From Actinomycetaceae bacterium (lineage in GTDB: Bacteria > Actinomycetota > Actinomycetes > Actinomycetales > Actinomycetaceae): a DNA stretch of 45,791 nt. A program made the position numbers and the translations under genes. The notes under the pieces were generated by a model. It was not told the origin of the DNA. It was given only the letters and a program-made list of their open reading frames with translations, and made no database searches. How positions within the stretch are numbered: the stretch's first letter is position 1; the number at the start of each line of letters is the position of its first letter. Location of the stretch: the NCBI GenBank assembly GCA_015062745.1, contig SUUB01000006.1, forward strand, positions 53,888-99,678. Reading direction: 5' to 3'. Below, piece by piece: positions 13,132 to 19,246 of this stretch.

Positions 13132-13162
13132 GACGCGGGCCGGGACGATAGCTGCCGAGGTG

Positions 13163-13189
13163 AAAGGCGGGCGACCCGCGCCCGCCTTT
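13163..13189. terminator. Hairpin between convergent genes
   Basis: AAAGGCGGGC / GCCCGCCTTT, a perfect 10-bp stem with a 7-nt loop. The A/T ends of the stem give a short T-run on both strands, so it can serve DUF3107 on the plus strand and the deacetylase gene on the minus strand. Confidence 0.8.
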
Positions 13190-13256
13190 CCTCATACCAC
13201 CTTTAGGCAGTCGGTCTGCATTCGCCGCGCAGCCGGAACGCGCGGCCCGCCGTCGG

Positions 13257-15251
13257 CTAGTTCAACTCGGTAGCCGGAACGAAGGTGTATCCCAGGCCCT
13301 GAATGCCCTCCACCGCCGTCTGTAGTTCCGACACGGGATAGCCCGGATGGAAGAAGAAACTGGCATTACCCTGGTCGACAACTAGATTCGCTCGGGCGTT
13401 CTCGACCAGGTCCTGCCCGGTGCGCGCCGCATGGTTGTTATATTCCTCCGGTTCGAAGTTTCCGAGATTCTCGGGAAGAATCTTCGTGCCGTAAATATCA
13501 CTCACCGTGTACGGGAAGAACTGACCGAAATGACCCGCTGCACCGCTTATGGCCTTGTTGAGCTGGCCAGGGAAGAACAGTTCGCGTTCGTACCGCGTGC
13601 TGTACACCTGTCCGATCCCCTGGTAACTGGCGGCAGTCGCGGCATAGTGCGGAGTCTCCCAAATCTGCACGTCGCCCAGGCCGACGTCGGTCAATTCCGT
13701 GTACCCGATCGATGCACGCTCGCTCGCCCACGCTGCACTGTCATCGGGGAGGGCACCCACCAGTTGCACCCACGAGTTGTCCTGGCAGGCCACCGCGCCC
13801 CCGCTGCCGTCGGCCGTGTCGGTGCAGTAGGATCGGTAGAACTCGAAGTCGTCGGTACTCACCGCGTCGTAAGGATTATTAAGCGTGCCGTATTGATGCG
13901 TCGTACCATGTTGGATCACCGTTCCGCCGTGTTTTTGCGCGTATTGGATCACCGCTAGCACCTCTTGGTTGTCCGCGAAGGTCAGCGCCTCCGGCACACC
14001 GTTGTTATACACGCCGGTGGGGTCGATATAGTACGGCACCACCGCCATCTGAAACGGCACACCCGCACCGACGAGGTAATCAACGAGTTCCTCCAATTCC
14101 GCTGCGTCCGTCCCCGGGCTAATATCCTCGATTCGGATGGCGGCCGTCTTCTCAGTGACAACACCGGGAGCAAGAAGCTCACAGAGCAAGTCGGAGAAGG
14201 CCAGGTATCGATCCGTTTCACTCATATAGGACAGCGGGATCTCGCCAATATAGGTCAGATTTCCGGAGCGGATCGCCCACGGGAACGAACTGCCGGTGGT
14301 CTGGGCGATTGGCGCACAGTCCTGAACTGTCACACCGTCGCTGGTGCAGGTGGCGGTACCGAGTACCGTCACGGCATCTTCATCGGTTACATGCGGTGCA
14401 ATAATTCCGCCCGAATTGGCGGTGTCGCGTGTCAGAGCCTGGCCATCATATGTAATCGAGGCAACGACATCACTCGAATCGATGTAGGACGTCGCGGCAT
14501 CCCACCCGTATCGAGCGGCGAACGCGGCACGATTCTCATCGGTAGCCGCCAACTCCCAGATGTTGAAACCTGCCCACAGCACCGGAACGTCTCCGGTGAG
14601 AACATCGGAGACGAATGCCTCCGGAAGCGGCTCATCGTAGGTGGACCCGAGGTACACAACGCCGTCGTAACGGCCCGCTAGACCCGCGGCGTAGTCCGCC
14701 ACCGGCACAGCCGTCACGAGACCAAAATGCGTAGCGAGAGTACTCGTACCGATCGCGTAGCTTTCAGCCAACTGCGCATAGTCACCGGTTGAGTCATACA
14801 GTACAAGCGCATGCGCGGCTCCCTCCGCGTCACCGAAGGTCACAGCAGAGTCGGGCACCGTCGTGTCACTGGCAGCGAGGTCGCGGATCGGCGCAGGTGT
14901 GTATGACGTATCAATATCGCTGGCGAGGTCGACCTCCGCGTCGCTCGCCTCCAACGGCAGCACGTTCTGGGCGGCGGCGAGGGGCTCCTCAGGGGATTCA
15001 AGCGGATTATCTGTGACCAGAGTGGACTCGGACGTTCCCTCCTCCGCTTCCTGCGCACCTTCGAGCGCACCGGCGGGATCCGGGTCGGGCGCCGTGACAT
15101 TCATCGCCGGCGCATCCAGAAGATCACCGTTGGTATCACCGGTGTCTCGCTCACCGGCCATAGCCGGTGTGGCCAAGGCCAGAGCGGCGCACAGTGCGGC
15201 ACTTGTCAGCGTAAATCGTGTTTTCTGCGTGCTCACACGCATCTTTCGCAT
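13257..15251 (-). CDS. Secreted DUF2334 polysaccharide-deacetylase-like protein
   Basis: This 664-residue protein has a signal peptide (cleavage near ATPAMA-GERD, residue 32), a low-complexity acidic linker (about 33-145), a first domain (about 146-360) with HALVLYDSTGDYAQLAESYA and VVYLGSTYDEPLP, and a DUF2334 domain (about 365-664) with RIEDISPG (373-380) and HGTTHQYG (448-455). DUF2334 shares the polysaccharide-deacetylase fold; RxED and HxxxH supply the likely metal ligands. It probably removes N-acetyl groups from, or trims, the exported polymer outside the cell. RBS GAGAGGAAAG precedes the ATG at 15251. It is the last gene of the five-gene exopolysaccharide operon. The substrate is inferred. 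Confidence 0.82.
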   Translation of the reverse strand: MRKMRVSTQKTRFTLTSAALCAALALATPAMAGERDTGDTNGDLLDAPAMNVTAPDPDPAGALEGAQEAEEGTSESTLVTDNPLESPEEPLAAAQNVLPLEASDAEVDLASDIDTSYTPAPIRDLAASDTTVPDSAVTFGDAEGAAHALVLYDSTGDYAQLAESYAIGTSTLATHFGLVTAVPVADYAAGLAGRYDGVVYLGSTYDEPLPEAFVSDVLTGDVPVLWAGFNIWELAATDENRAAFAARYGWDAATSYIDSSDVVASITYDGQALTRDTANSGGIIAPHVTDEDAVTVLGTATCTSDGVTVQDCAPIAQTTGSSFPWAIRSGNLTYIGEIPLSYMSETDRYLAFSDLLCELLAPGVVTEKTAAIRIEDISPGTDAAELEELVDYLVGAGVPFQMAVVPYYIDPTGVYNNGVPEALTFADNQEVLAVIQYAQKHGGTVIQHGTTHQYGTLNNPYDAVSTDDFEFYRSYCTDTADGSGGAVACQDNSWVQLVGALPDDSAAWASERASIGYTELTDVGLGDVQIWETPHYAATAASYQGIGQVYSTRYERELFFPGQLNKAISGAAGHFGQFFPYTVSDIYGTKILPENLGNFEPEEYNNHAARTGQDLVENARANLVVDQGNASFFFHPGYPVSELQTAVEGIQGLGYTFVPATELN

Positions 15252-15274
15252 TCGTTTCTTTCCTCTCTATCAGC

Positions 15275-15298
15275 GCGCGTGCCTTCAGGCACACGCGC
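15275..15298 (-). terminator. GC-rich hairpin between epimerase and deacetylase genes
   Basis: GCGCGTGCC TTCA GGCACACGCGC pairs with a 2-nt bulge just upstream of the deacetylase ribosome site. It may partly attenuate transcription or protect the downstream mRNA. No T-run follows. Confidence 0.4.
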
Positions 15299-15387
15299 CG
15301 AGACGTCCGAGCAGGCCGTGAGCTCGGCGGCCGGTTGTCAGCCCCCGGACCGTCTTGAACTCAGACAGTTCTCGACTCGGATGGGTT

Positions 15388-16599
15388 TCAGCGCCCCGGC
15401 GCAAAGTCTGGCTCCGCTTCCCCGCGTCCGAAATAGTGCGCGGTAGCGGCGAGAATACGTTGGCTCGCACGCCCGTCTCCGTAGGGATTGACGGCATGCG
15501 CCATGGCCGCGTAGGCATCTCGATCGCACAGCAGCGTATTGATTTCAGTGGCAATTCGTTCAGGCTCGGTGCCGATCAACTTCGCGACGCCGAACTCAAT
15601 GGCCTCCGGCCGTTCGGTATTGTCGCGCAGCACGAGTACCGGCTTGGAAAGGGCTGGCGCTTCCTCCTGGATACCCCCGGAATCGGTCACCACGAGTTCC
15701 GCTCGATTCATTACCGTGCAGAAGGCGCCGTATTCAAGCGGTTCCGTGACTAGGACGTTGTCAATCTCCTCGACGACGGGGAGAAGCGCACCTCGTACGA
15801 TCGGGTTGCGGTGTACCGGCAGGATGAAAGTTGTCTCCGGGTTTGCGTGAGCCGCCGTTGCTATGCCCCGCGCGATACCCACCATCGGTTCCCCCCATGA
15901 CTCGCGCCGATGTGCGGTCACCAACACGAGGCGGCGTTCCTGATCCGCGACAAGCGCGTCAAGCGCAGTGTCACCGGAAGGCAACGGACGCTGCACCGCC
16001 AAATGGAGAGCATCAATCACCGTATTTCCGGTGACATGCATCTGCATGGGGCTGACGTTCTCCCGCAACAGATTCTCCCGCGAGCCCGCCGTCGGCGGGA
16101 AATGAATTGACGAGATCTGGCCGAGTAGACGCCGGTTGCCCTCCTCGGGGAACGGAGAGCGCAAGTTACCGGTACGCAGCCCAGCCTCGACATGAAAGAG
16201 CGGGATACTTCGATAGAAGGCGGCCAATCCGGCTGCGAAAGCGGACGTTGTATCGCCCTGGACCATCACCACATCCGGTGCGAGCGAGTCAAGTACGCCG
16301 CCAACTCCTTCCAGAGTTCCGGTTGTCACCTGTGTCAAGGTCTGACCGGGCCGATGAATACCGAGATCAATGTCCGGAGTAATACCAAAAAAGGCGTTGA
16401 CTTGATCTAACATCTCGCGGTGCTGTCCCGTAACCACACATATTGGTTCGAATTGCGGGCTCTTGTCCATCGCCAGTGCCAAAGGCGCCATCTTAATCGC
16501 CTCGGGGCGGGTGCCGTACACCAACATGACGCGCAGTGGGGCTGTGGGCACCTGTCGTTCCGCAGTGTCCCGTACAGCGGTATCTTCCGCTCTTTCCAT
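15388..16599 (-). CDS. wecB: UDP-N-acetylglucosamine 2-epimerase (non-hydrolysing)
   Basis: This 403-residue enzyme contains VMLVYGTRPEAIKMAPLALA, CVVTGQHREML, MVQGDTTSAFA, HVEAGLRTGN, VLVTAHRRESWG, PVHRNP, VVTDSGGIQEEAP and RPEAIEFGV, which are the landmarks of WecB/MnaA. It interconverts UDP-GlcNAc and UDP-ManNAc in the cytosol. The ATG at 16599 was chosen because AAAGGAAAGGACA precedes it; an upstream GTG at 16683 in frame adds 28 unlike-family residues. Placement between a GT2 synthase operon and a deacetylase suggests that it supplies UDP-ManNAc for this polymer. Alternatively it could serve teichoic or teichuronic acid synthesis. Confidence 0.93.
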   Translation of the reverse strand: MERAEDTAVRDTAERQVPTAPLRVMLVYGTRPEAIKMAPLALAMDKSPQFEPICVVTGQHREMLDQVNAFFGITPDIDLGIHRPGQTLTQVTTGTLEGVGGVLDSLAPDVVMVQGDTTSAFAAGLAAFYRSIPLFHVEAGLRTGNLRSPFPEEGNRRLLGQISSIHFPPTAGSRENLLRENVSPMQMHVTGNTVIDALHLAVQRPLPSGDTALDALVADQERRLVLVTAHRRESWGEPMVGIARGIATAAHANPETTFILPVHRNPIVRGALLPVVEEIDNVLVTEPLEYGAFCTVMNRAELVVTDSGGIQEEAPALSKPVLVLRDNTERPEAIEFGVAKLIGTEPERIATEINTLLCDRDAYAAMAHAVNPYGDGRASQRILAATAHYFGRGEAEPDFAPGR

Positions 16600-16721
16600 T
16601 GTCCTTTCCTTTGCTATGCCAGTACCCGCTTGTGCGCCCGATGACGAGTACAGGGCCAATGCGTTGCCCGCCCCGGTGTTCACCGCCGCATTTGCAGCCC
16701 CCGCAACGGTGACACGTCTAT

Positions 16722-17423
16722 TTACCGTTCTTTAATAGCTACCTTTTCCTCCGGAGCCGTGTCCGACGTGGAGTAGGTGGCCCATATGTCCGAGAAGGTG
16801 ACATCCGCATCCTCCGCGTACAGTGCAACGACGCCTAGAGAATACGGACGTTCCGTATCACTGATCCTGGTAATCTTCCTGCCATCCACCCAGACTGTGA
16901 AGTCTCCGTCCTCTCCGTTACCAGTTATCTCGATCGTGTGGGTGGTACCGATGTCGAAGGAGGGATCTTCCCCCGTCGCAAGAAAACGCTGCCCGCCCTC
17001 GTACTGCGGGTCGCGTTTCGTTATCTCCCACCCGTTCGGTTTCAGCAGTAGCGCGTAGAAGTGCTGTGGATCCTCGTAGCCCCATACGAACCAGCCCACC
17101 TCCCACGAATTTGCATCGCCCTGGCGTAGCTGCTTGTTCGTCGTGAGCGTGGCCCCGATCGCGCGTGGATCCGAATTTGCGGTGCCGATGGCGCCATTCT
17201 CCACTAGAAGCGCCGAATGCGTCTCATCACTCTGCTCAGCGGGCGCCGGTACCAGACGCACGCTCCCGCTCTCACACGTCACCCTGCCATAACCGTCATA
17301 GATGACGGCCCAACCGGGACAACGGTCCGGCGTCGAACGGAATATCAAGATCCCAGCCATACAACCTACCAGTGTGGCCAATAGCGCTGCCGCGATAGCA
17401 TAGCGCTTCTTGTGCCGTATCAC
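16722..17423 (-). CDS. Secreted or lipid-anchored LamG/DUF1080-like protein
   Basis: This 233-residue protein starts with a basic then hydrophobic segment, AIAAALLATLVGCMAGILIF. LVGC fits a lipobox with Cys21, although the hydrophobic run continues after it, so a plain membrane anchor is possible. The rest is beta-rich: SWEVGWFVWGYEDPQHFYAL, KPNGWEITKRDP, HTIEITGNGEDGDFTVWVDG and SLGVVALYAEDADVTFSDIW. This pattern is characteristic of concanavalin-like (LamG, DUF1080) sugar-binding or sugar-hydrolysing folds. The ATG overlaps the GT2 stop by 4 bp. A role in binding or processing the nascent polysaccharide is inferred; no catalytic residues were identified. Confidence 0.6.
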   Translation of the reverse strand: MIRHKKRYAIAAALLATLVGCMAGILIFRSTPDRCPGWAVIYDGYGRVTCESGSVRLVPAPAEQSDETHSALLVENGAIGTANSDPRAIGATLTTNKQLRQGDANSWEVGWFVWGYEDPQHFYALLLKPNGWEITKRDPQYEGGQRFLATGEDPSFDIGTTHTIEITGNGEDGDFTVWVDGRKITRISDTERPYSLGVVALYAEDADVTFSDIWATYSTSDTAPEEKVAIKER

Positions 17424-18820
17424 GCCGGCTTGACCTTCAATTCGGCTATCTCAGCTCCAGTTCCCACAATCGCTTCGCGCGACTCGCTTTCCCGTTTGGT
17501 CTTCTGCCAACCGGTACGTCCGAAGACGGTGCGCACAATCGCCCACCATCCCGCAATGTAGCCCAGCATGCTGTATAGGACATACAGATGCGAGTATAGG
17601 AACCCGCGGACAAAGCCGAAACCGTTCCTTCTTTCAATACGCCAGTAGCGGATACCGTAGATCACGGCGGGGCCGAAGGCAAGGACGTAGGCCAACACCA
17701 ACCACATCCAGCTTCGTTCCGTGCCATCAGAGCCGGCAAGGGCGACGGCCACCAGTGCGACAACGAAGGACGCCGTCAAGAGTGAGGTGGCAAGCACAAG
17801 GTAGGGCGACAGCATCTGGTACAGGGAGTCGGTGCGGCTCCTACCGTGCTGCTCACGCACGGTGTACCTGATCAAACGGCTGGCCTGCAGATTGCCCTGA
17901 AACCAGCGGGCGCGTTGCCGTAGCAGGCGTCGCAAACTGGTTACGCCCTGCTGATGCACGACGGCTTCTGCGGAGAACTCATTCGTCCAGCCGCTGGCAT
18001 TCAGGCGTATACCAAGATCGAAGTCTTCCGTCAGTGTGTCAGACCATGGCCGCTCGCCCAGCGAGTTCAGCGCCGATAGCCGTACGAATTGCCCATTGCC
18101 ACCCATCCCCACGCTGCCGAGATGCCTACGGCCCTTCTGGAAGATCTCCGTGAAGATCACGAACTCCATGTCCTGCATGCGTGCGAGCGCCGAGTGGAAA
18201 CGGTTATTGATTCGAACCCCGAGTTGGACAGCACCGACTTTCGGGTCCAAGAAGGCCAGCCGCGCCGTGGTAATGCCTTCCGGGTCCAGCCTCCCGTCGG
18301 CATCCATCACGCCGACGACGACGCCTTCTGCGGGCAGATCACGGTAGCGGCGGCGGACGTGGCGCAGCGCATCGTTGAGAGCATCGCCCTTGCCGCGTTG
18401 AGCGAAGGGAGGAACACGGTGTATAACGTTGACCCGCGGATCCTGAATCGAGTCAAGGACCGCGGCAGTGCCATCATTCGATGCATCGTCAATCACCAAG
18501 ATGTCGAGTTGCCGCGTCGGTATGGCGAGAAGCCGGCGGATACTCGCCTCAATGACCGTCGCCTCGTTGAGACACGGTACGAGAACAACAATCGTGGGGT
18601 ACCCCATCTGGTCGGCATTCTCCAACCCGTCAATCATACGAAGCGCGGCCTCATGTGCCCGACGGCGTGCGCGCGGGGCACGGTAGGAGAAAACGAGGAG
18701 GGTCATACCGTACACGATGGCTGTGCCGATCATCGCTACAGCGCCCCACCATCCGATGGCGTCAATCACGCTGCTAGACCTACCCGCCGCGAGCACCATT
18801 GAACCATGTGTAAATGTCAT
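17420..18820 (-). CDS. Processive GT2 exopolysaccharide synthase
   Basis: This 466-residue membrane glycosyltransferase has one N-terminal helix (about 20-46), a GT2 catalytic domain (about 74-310) and about three C-terminal helices. Catalytic landmarks are VIDDASNDGT (109-118), MDADG (172-176, the DxD metal site), TEDFDLG (264-270) and RQRARWFQG (the QxxRW motif, about 302-306). QxxRW with flanking helices defines processive synthases such as PgaC/IcaA, hyaluronan and cellulose synthases. PgaC/IcaA-type poly-hexosamine synthesis is the closest idea; the actual sugar is unknown. RBS GAGGTG lies between it and the small gene upstream, and the stop overlaps the next start. Confidence 0.88.
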   Translation of the reverse strand: MTFTHGSMVLAAGRSSSVIDAIGWWGAVAMIGTAIVYGMTLLVFSYRAPRARRRAHEAALRMIDGLENADQMGYPTIVVLVPCLNEATVIEASIRRLLAIPTRQLDILVIDDASNDGTAAVLDSIQDPRVNVIHRVPPFAQRGKGDALNDALRHVRRRYRDLPAEGVVVGVMDADGRLDPEGITTARLAFLDPKVGAVQLGVRINNRFHSALARMQDMEFVIFTEIFQKGRRHLGSVGMGGNGQFVRLSALNSLGERPWSDTLTEDFDLGIRLNASGWTNEFSAEAVVHQQGVTSLRRLLRQRARWFQGNLQASRLIRYTVREQHGRSRTDSLYQMLSPYLVLATSLLTASFVVALVAVALAGSDGTERSWMWLVLAYVLAFGPAVIYGIRYWRIERRNGFGFVRGFLYSHLYVLYSMLGYIAGWWAIVRTVFGRTGWQKTKRESESREAIVGTGAEIAELKVKPA

Positions 18821-18832
18821 CGCGAGAGCACC

Positions 18833-19108
18833 TCACGCAGATGGCGGAGCCCAGATGGAGGGCGCGGCGGAGTCGTGATACCCATATGCCTTGGCGGACC
18901 GTCCAACGCCTGCCCCTTGTACGGACGCTCGGATGTCATGCAACCGACCAACTGCATCCAACGCAATCAGCAGTACCGCGAGGAGGAGAAAGAGTATCCC
19001 CGCGACGTTGAAACATGTTCTGGCAAGGGTTGCTAGACCGGTACTAGCAGGAAGAACCTGGGCCGCTGCGAGGAGGCCGAGACCCGGCATGATTGGCGAA
19101 TAGTGCAT
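18833..19108 (-). CDS. Small two-helix membrane protein heading the exopolysaccharide operon
   Basis: This 91-residue open frame has two hydrophobic stretches, about 8-25 (PGLGLLAAAQVLPASTGL) and about 33-52 (FNVAGILFLLLAVLLIALDA), and a short hydrophilic tail. The ATG at 19108 follows GGACGGTGGG; a second ATG six codons later is possible. It ends 12 bp before the GT2 start, whose ribosome site directly follows the stop, so they are very likely co-transcribed. No family is recognised. By size, topology and position it could play the part of IcaD/PgaD, the small membrane partner of poly-GlcNAc synthases. LPASTG is sortase-motif-like but N-terminal to the helix, and its meaning is unclear. Confidence 0.55.
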   Translation of the reverse strand: MHYSPIMPGLGLLAAAQVLPASTGLATLARTCFNVAGILFLLLAVLLIALDAVGRLHDIRASVQGAGVGRSAKAYGYHDSAAPSIWAPPSA

Positions 19109-19228: not shown

Positions 19229-19246
19229 ATGGGTATCAATACCCAT
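19229..19246. promoter_or_regulatory. Perfect 18-bp palindromic operator candidate
   Basis: ATGGGTAT CA ATACCCAT is an 8-bp inverted repeat with a 2-nt centre. It sits between the two divergent -35 elements and touches the plus-strand one, as expected for a dimeric repressor controlling one or both promoters. No regulator gene is adjacent. Confidence 0.55.

What the first reader, a model, noticed from the sequence alone, without database searches (positions are those of the whole stretch)
13257..19108. Compact five-gene exopolysaccharide operon with its own UDP-GlcNAc 2-epimerase
Seen: small membrane protein, processive GT2 synthase (DAD, TED, QRARW), secreted LamG-like protein, WecB-type epimerase and secreted DUF2334 deacetylase, all on one strand with short gaps or overlaps. 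Known: ica/pga operons pair a GT2 synthase, a small membrane subunit and a deacetylase to make partly deacetylated poly-GlcNAc; the epimerase makes UDP-ManNAc. Inference: this is a synthase-dependent polymer containing ManNAc (poly-ManNAc or mixed), modified by a deacetylase of a different family from IcaB/PgaB. I know of no described actinomycete system with this exact gene set.
Basis: partly seen in the sequence, partly recalled or inferred. Interest (0 to 1): 0.75.

Follow-up and report, generated by a model that had tools for sequence, protein, structure and literature searches.

The report
Likely N-acetylmannosamine exopolysaccharide operon of actinomycetes
The window holds a compact operon, found again in many actinomycetes including Streptomyces, that most likely makes and trims a surface polysaccharide built from N-acetylmannosamine, a kind of polymer I found no description of in these bacteria.

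Summary
The five genes are real and in the order reported. Among 80 named actinomycete loci chosen only by similarity of the GT2 synthase, 79 have the DUF2334 gene within 5 kb, 77 the LamG-like gene, 75 the WecB epimerase, and 73 all three. The small membrane gene was found in only 22 and is not core. WecB is intact, the only copy in this genome, and not visibly tied to teichoic acid (no TagA/WecG, no dedicated UDP-ManNAc dehydrogenase). The synthase keeps the processive GT2 motifs but forms a WecB-linked clade apart from PgaC, NfrB and BcsA. The LamG-like protein models as a membrane-anchored CBM66-like jelly roll, and distant relatives fuse it to the DUF2334 protein, which models as an alpha/beta domain plus a CE4-type deacetylase barrel. 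New evidence: streptomycete versions add a GH113 gene, a family characterised as endo-beta-1,4-mannanases. In 199 genomes that GH113 class and this synthase co-occur almost perfectly (14 shared, 1 exception each, p = 2e-19). This favours a beta-1,4-ManNAc polymer, partly deacetylated. Chemistry is unproven. New variant of a known kind.

The parts
18833..19108 (-). Small membrane protein (91 aa, one strong TM segment 35-53); conserved in Actinomycetaceae, found in 22 of 80 wider loci; role unknown, possibly a synthase subunit
   Evidence: no alignment to PgaD
17420..18820 (-). Processive GT2 polysaccharide synthase (466 aa) with DAD, TED and QxxRW motifs; member of a WecB-linked GT2 clade
16722..17423 (-). 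LamG-like protein: N-terminal membrane helix plus extracellular jelly roll closest in fold to CBM66; probable polymer-binding partner of the deacetylase
   Evidence: natural fusions to the DUF2334 protein
15388..16683 (-). Non-hydrolysing UDP-GlcNAc 2-epimerase (WecB/MnaA); only copy in the genome; true start may be the ATG at codon 29
13257..15251 (-). Secreted DUF2334 protein: signal peptide, alpha/beta domain (~137-360) and CE4-type deacetylase barrel (366-664) with conserved metal and catalytic residues
19229..19246 (.). Palindrome ATGGGTATTGATACCCAT in the operon leader, conserved in place in three genomes groups (window genus, Actinobaculum, Peptidiphaga); candidate operator
13132..13256 (-). 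Stretch after the DUF2334 stop holding a strong G+C hairpin (GGCGGGCGCGGGTCGCCCGCC then TTT); probable operon end
   Evidence: sequence read; not reported by the terminator scan, the T run being short

Best explanation
The operon makes a synthase-dependent exopolysaccharide built wholly or largely from N-acetylmannosamine, probably beta-1,4-linked, and modifies it outside the cell. Proposed steps: (1) WecB converts UDP-GlcNAc to UDP-ManNAc in the cytoplasm. (2) The membrane GT2 polymerises it and, as BcsA, HasA and PgaC do, passes the chain through the membrane; the small membrane protein may be a local accessory subunit. (3) The membrane-anchored CBM66-like protein binds the emerging chain. 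(4) The secreted DUF2334 enzyme, built like the Pel and GAG deacetylases, removes some N-acetyl groups, giving a partly cationic, adhesive polymer. (5) In streptomycetes a GH113 hydrolase encoded beside the deacetylase cuts or trims the same polymer. Shown here: gene set, conservation, intact motifs, modelled folds, fusions, and the GT2-GH113 co-occurrence. Inferred: substrate, linkage, export, deacetylation, biological role.
For: Conserved co-localisation: 73 of 80 GT2-selected loci hold all four core genes within 5 kb, in several orders; eleven Actinomycetaceae genomes of three genera hold the operon, in two kinds of surroundings. WecB is intact and non-hydrolysing. This genome has no other WecB, no WecG/TagA and no dedicated UDP-ManNAc dehydrogenase, so the GT2 is the visible consumer of UDP-ManNAc. 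More distant GT2s of the same clade are still next to WecB even without the other genes (L026-L028; L212 and L214). Streptomycete loci carry GH113 beside the deacetylase (47-48 loci), both catalytic Glu kept in 47/47, nearest solved structures endo-beta-1,4-mannanases; co-occurrence across 199 genomes p = 2e-19. LamG-deacetylase fusions. DUF2334 motif positions conserved in 39-40 of 40. Precedents: E. coli NfrB depends on WecB's product (PMC8669469, PMC8669472); Listeria makes poly-beta-1,4-ManNAc with galactose branches (review PMC5039582).
Against: No chemistry. The GT2's best functionally defined match is the PNAG synthase model (105 bits), it is only marginally similar to NfrB, and sequence does not fix GlcNAc versus ManNAc. 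The epimerase reaction is reversible, so the donor pool is mixed. GH113 is absent from the window's genome and from the 13 other operon-bearing genomes tested, so linkage is carried over from relatives. A Streptomyces GH113 (CCK30803.1) was inactive on mannans (PMC9032380); this would fit a mannosamine substrate but also any other. The DUF2334 base position is Glu, not the Asp seen in CE4/CE18/CE21/CE26 enzymes, and the one held paper naming DUF2334 documents no activity search for it that I used.
Confidence: 0.62

Rival explanations
1. A mixed polymer: the GT2 uses both UDP-GlcNAc and UDP-ManNAc (or ManNAc is one residue of a repeat), and WecB sets the ratio.
For: WecB is freely reversible (established enzymology); only one synthase is present; the GT2 has weak scores to both PgaC and NodC models.
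Against: Single-GT2 synthases usually make homopolymers (hyaluronan synthase is the known exception; own knowledge). GH113 suggests runs of beta-manno residues.
Confidence: 0.18
2. A poly-GlcNAc (PNAG-type) exopolysaccharide; WecB is there for another purpose such as wall polymer supply.
For: PgaC/IcaA is the best functionally defined model hit (104.6 bits), 28% identity to E. coli PgaC; Streptomyces make PNAG by MatAB (PMC5972031).
Against: Score is a quarter of the equivalog cut-off (422); the GT2 tree separates the clade from PgaC; WecB stays beside the GT2 across order changes and in 75 of 80 loci; no IcaB/PgaB-type deacetylase gene; no other use of UDP-ManNAc seen in this genome.
Confidence: 0.12
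3. Not a free exopolysaccharide but a ManNAc-containing wall-linked glycopolymer, with the GT2 acting on a lipid-linked acceptor.
For: WecB/MnaA enzymes serve wall polymers elsewhere (Paenibacillus SCWP, PMC11464976, abstract); DUF2334 and LamG proteins could act at the wall.
Against: No WecG/TagA in the genome; the GT2 has the TM segments and QxxRW motif of processive synthases; no flippase, ligase or second GT is part of the conserved set.
Confidence: 0.08

Closest known systems
E. coli Nfr / NGR system (NfrB, NfrA, YbcH + WecB; PMC8669469, PMC8669472)
   Same: Membrane GT2 synthase dependent on the WecB product UDP-ManNAc; wecB sits beside nfrB where no other wecB exists
   Different: [quoted passage not shown] only marginal GT2 similarity (26%, E 4e-4); no deacetylase, CBM or GH113 described; this genome has no GGDEF protein
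Listeria pssA-E (poly-beta-1,4-ManNAc-Gal; PMC4125290, PMC5039582)
   Same: Gram-positive, synthase-dependent ManNAc exopolysaccharide
   Different: PssD is a BcsB orthologue and PssE a c-di-GMP receptor; neither type is in this operon. Direct sequence comparison was not done
ica/pga PNAG operons
   Same: GT2 synthase plus extracellular deacetylase, small membrane protein in some loci
   Different: GT2 far below the PgaC/IcaA equivalog cut-off; deacetylase family, epimerase and CBM66-like protein differ; no PgaA, no IcaC in the operon
Pel (PelA CE21, PMC12022489; PelADA CE26/CBM114, PMC13254593) and fungal GAG (Agd3 CE18/CBM87, PMC7229062)
   Same: Deacetylase with an alpha/beta domain before a CE4-like barrel; in GAG a cluster epimerase supplies the non-GlcNAc donor
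   Different: Those polymers contain GalNAc; synthases and exporters differ; bacterial Agd3-type operons carry a GH114 gene and a multi-spanning membrane protein, and no WecB is described there
Streptomyces MatAB (PNAG; PMC5972031)
   Same: Actinomycete GT2 exopolysaccharide with deacetylation
   Different: MatB is one GT2-CE4 fusion; no epimerase is mentioned

Membership tests
Non-hydrolysing UDP-GlcNAc 2-epimerase (WecB) | Above TIGR00236 equivalog cut-off | tested here: met
   443.9 bits against 210.15; hydrolysing NeuC model 80.5 against 235.9
Non-hydrolysing UDP-GlcNAc 2-epimerase (WecB) | Full-length alignment to the E. coli enzyme with the conserved acidic and His positions | tested here: met
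   Alignment of residues 51-414 to 1vgv/1f6d, E about 1e-113
PNAG synthase operon (ica/pga) | GT2 above PgaC/IcaA equivalog cut-off | tested here: not met
   104.6 bits against 422.3; separate clade
PNAG synthase operon (ica/pga) | IcaB/PgaB-type deacetylase | tested here: not met
   Only DUF2334 found; no significant profile match to E. coli PgaB
PNAG synthase operon (ica/pga) | PgaD/IcaD small subunit | tested here: inconclusive
   Size and a TM segment fit; no sequence alignment to PgaD
Nfr/NGR ManNAc system | WecB-dependent GT2 with UDP-ManNAc donor | not testable with these tools
   WecB linkage shown; donor use needs enzymology
Nfr/NGR ManNAc system | MshEN c-di-GMP-binding domain on the synthase | tested here: not met
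   466-aa GT2 with GT2 domains only; no GGDEF in the genome
Listeria Pss system | BcsB-like PssD and PssE-type c-di-GMP receptor in the operon | tested here: not met
   Neither in the operon; no GGDEF in the genome
CE4/CE18/CE21/CE26 deacetylase superfamily | CE barrel fold | tested here: met
   Model matches polysaccharide deacetylases, Z about 18 over about 220 residues, rmsd about 3 A
CE4/CE18/CE21/CE26 deacetylase superfamily | Metal Asp plus HxxxH, catalytic His, MT3 Pro, base-activating Arg | tested here: met
   D376 40/40, H448 39/40 and H452 40/40, P534 40/40, R553 and R556 39/40, H635 39/40; roles assigned by analogy with PMC13254593 and PMC7229062
CE4/CE18/CE21/CE26 deacetylase superfamily | Asp as catalytic base before the metal Asp | tested here: not met
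   Glu375 in 40/40
GH113 (streptomycete relatives only) | Above Pfam cut-off with both catalytic Glu | tested here: met
   199.5 bits against 27; Glu pair 47/47

The most novel reading that the evidence does not exclude
A widespread, undescribed actinomycete surface polymer: partly de-N-acetylated poly-beta-1,4-ManNAc (a cationic mannosaminan), made by a new GT2 clade, deacetylated by DUF2334 enzymes as a new carbohydrate esterase family, bound by a new CBM family, and cut by the operon-linked streptomycete GH113 class.
Probability: 0.4. Interest if true: 0.78.

Novelty: new variant of a known kind. Interest (0 to 1): 0.63.

Why it matters
It would add a mannosamine polymer to the short list of synthase-dependent exopolysaccharides, in oral Actinomyces and in streptomycetes used by industry, where pellet and biofilm polymers matter. 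It gives DUF2334 a concrete predicted activity, and it offers a candidate natural substrate for streptomycete GH113 enzymes: the one Streptomyces member tested in the survey of that family was soluble but inactive on every mannan tried (PMC9032380).

Tried and rejected
Wall teichoic acid role: no WecG/TagA. ManNAcA-containing polymer: the only good UDP-sugar dehydrogenase scores as UDP-glucose type (353 against 147 bits for WecC). c-di-GMP control: no GGDEF in the genome. LamG protein as an E. coli YbcH relative: no match. DUF2334 as a PgaB relative by profile: no match. Small protein as PgaD: no alignment. Defence role: no PADLOC hit. GH113 in the window's own lineage: none. The leader hairpin as a terminator: the palindrome is conserved but the T run is not. 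NfrB as a close relative of the GT2: marginal. Papers holding DUF2334, glycosyltransferase and exopolysaccharide together: none; XrtP exosortase, named in the best NCBIfam hit of the GT2: none. A phylum-wide search with the LamG profile found it in only 4 of 396 genomes, so the system is patchy. PDB profile searches with the LamG and DUF2334 alignments gave no convincing sequence relative.
Full report
Observation. The five minus-strand genes are present exactly as described. Pfam and NCBIfam identify a GT2 synthase, a wecB-type epimerase far above its cut-off, and a DUF2334 protein; the LamG-like and small proteins have no family above threshold. The spacing is operon-like, with good ribosome-binding sequences before at least the small, GT2 and DUF2334 genes and a G+C hairpin after the last gene.

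Conservation. In 151 genomes of the same family the GT2 occurs in 14. Eleven of these, the window's own included, hold the operon: GT2, LamG-like, WecB and DUF2334 in the same order in all, with the small gene detected in nine. In two genera the flanking genes are those of the window (DEAD helicase, DUF3107); in the third they are different, so the block is kept together while its surroundings change. A scan of named genomes with the GT2 alignment found 170 relatives, of which the best 80 were fetched. They were chosen by GT2 similarity alone. Within 5 kb, 79 have DUF2334, 77 the LamG-like gene, 75 WecB and 73 all three; only 22 have a recognisable small gene. Orders differ: Actinomyces has GT2-LamG-WecB-DUF2334, most Streptomyces have DUF2334 divergent from GT2-WecB-LamG. 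The core is therefore four genes. Taxa include Actinomyces, Peptidiphaga, Streptomyces, Kitasatospora, Actinomadura, Planomonospora, Corynebacterium, Mobilicoccus, Frankia and a Solirubrobacterales MAG. Distribution is patchy: 4 of 396 genomes sampled over the phylum with the LamG profile, and 15 of 199 genomes of the genus of G173, taken to be Streptomyces from its size and its 74-91% identical GT2s.

Sugar donor. WecB aligns end to end with the E. coli enzyme. The genome has no second WecB, no WecG/TagA homologue, and its one clear UDP-sugar dehydrogenase scores as UDP-glucose type. The visible consumer of UDP-ManNAc is thus the GT2. Several other Actinomycetaceae that carry the operon have a second, lower-scoring WecB homologue, so in them the operon copy looks dedicated. 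Even distant members of the GT2 clade that lack the other genes sit beside WecB (L026-L028; L212, L214). In E. coli the same logic was used to argue that NfrB polymerises ManNAc, and where an nfrB-bearing genome has no other wecB, one lies beside nfrB (PMC8669469).

Synthase. The GT2 keeps the D, DAD, TED and QxxRW positions. It is 28% identical to E. coli PgaC over 295 residues and only marginally similar to NfrB. A tree places the operon GT2s, the distant WecB-linked GT2s and those of L131-L133 in one clade apart from PgaC, NfrB and BcsA. The tree has few outgroups and long outgroup branches, so it shows separateness, not exact placement.

LamG-like protein. The model (mean pLDDT 89) is an N-terminal helix plus a jelly roll. 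Closest solved fold: CBM66 of a Bacillus subtilis levanase, Z 18.3, 155 residues, 2.4 A; GH16-type and 3-keto-glycoside enzymes follow at Z 13-14, so a catalytic role is not excluded. In two distant genomes a LamG domain is fused to the C-terminus of a divergent DUF2334 protein (L131, 825 aa; L132, 800 aa). Such a fusion suggests that the two act on the same substrate.

DUF2334 protein. The model (mean pLDDT 85) has a signal region, an alpha/beta domain and a CE barrel. The barrel matches polysaccharide deacetylases at Z about 18. PelA aligns over 367 residues spanning both domains (Z 14.7, but rmsd 6.2 A), which suggests the same arrangement without proving homology of the first domain. In PelADA and Agd3 the alpha/beta domain before the barrel is a carbohydrate-binding module (PMC13254593, PMC7229062). 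The catalytic positions of the CE4/CE18/CE21/CE26 group are conserved in 39-40 of 40 sequences, except that the base position is Glu.

GH113. Comparison of the loci showed one further conserved gene in streptomycetes, next to DUF2334: a GH113 enzyme (199.5 bits) whose nearest structures are endo-beta-1,4-mannanases, with the catalytic Glu pair kept in 47 of 47. In 199 genomes of the genus, GH113 members scoring about 184-201 bits occur in 15, the GT2 in 15, and 14 are shared, each pair on one contig within a few kilobases; Fisher p = 2e-19 (genomes are related, so the true significance is lower). In one genome with a more distant GT2 all five genes, DUF2334-GH113-GT2-WecB-LamG, run on one strand (L211). 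GH113 enzymes of known activity cut beta-1,4-mannosidic bonds (PMC9032380). A mannosidase-type enzyme tied to a WecB-linked synthase points to beta-linked manno-configured residues. The same paper reports a Streptomyces GH113 that was soluble but inactive on all mannans tried; whether that protein belongs to such a locus could not be checked here. GH113 is absent from the window's genome and the other operon-bearing relatives tested, so this evidence reaches the window through the shared four-gene core.

Mechanism. Shown: gene set, conservation, intact motifs, modelled folds, fusions, co-occurrence. Inferred: UDP-ManNAc as donor, a beta-1,4 homopolymer, partial de-N-acetylation outside the cell, polymer binding by the LamG-like domain, and a role in adhesion or biofilm. 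Control by c-di-GMP is unlikely here, since the genome has no GGDEF protein. A palindrome in the leader, kept at -128 to -144 in the window's genus, Actinobaculum and Peptidiphaga while the flanks diverge, may be an operator.

Comparison with the known. It works like the Nfr and Listeria Pss systems (synthase-dependent ManNAc polymers) but is a member of neither by the features tested. It is not an ica/pga operon: GT2 score, deacetylase family and gene content fail. The deacetylase is built like Pel/GAG enzymes, but the synthase is not. I found no paper in the held library describing this gene set; subscription journals are mostly not held.

Verdict. A real, conserved system; new variant of a known kind; the ManNAc reading is the best supported at about 0.62.

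Noticed in passing
window 19229-19246; also G000 C29:6257 (L116), L119, L123: Palindrome ATGGGTATTGATACCCAT recurs exactly elsewhere in this genome and its congener (e.g. beside a MoxR-type AAA gene) with a reversed-pattern control of 0-1: a possible regulon operator.
   Followed up: partly
L131:5940-8417 and L132:7875-10277: Natural fusion of a divergent DUF2334 deacetylase with a C-terminal LamG-like domain, next to GT2 and WecB; L131 also has a separate LamG gene.
   Followed up: partly
L026:5795-6784, L027:7489-10032: Distant WecB-GT2 pairs have other neighbours: a glucuronyl C5-epimerase-like gene in one, a GGDEF-EAL protein in another, suggesting related polymers with different modification or control.
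   Followed up: no
L036:11409-12779 and L041:5930-7315: hisD lies between WecB and DUF2334 in Actinomyces israelii but upstream of the operon in A. oris, so the operon has been rearranged around a histidine gene.
   Followed up: no
L041:13559-15052: A 497-aa ORF with no Pfam match follows DUF2334, with similar ORFs in 16 of 20 Actinomyces loci; it may be part of the system there.
   Followed up: no
genomes G660, G566, G621 and others: A second GH113 class (about 92-105 bits) occurs in the same genus mostly without this synthase; its context was not examined.
   Followed up: no
L056, L083, L098: Planomonospora/Planobispora loci carry two tandem DUF2334 genes after the GT2.
   Followed up: partly
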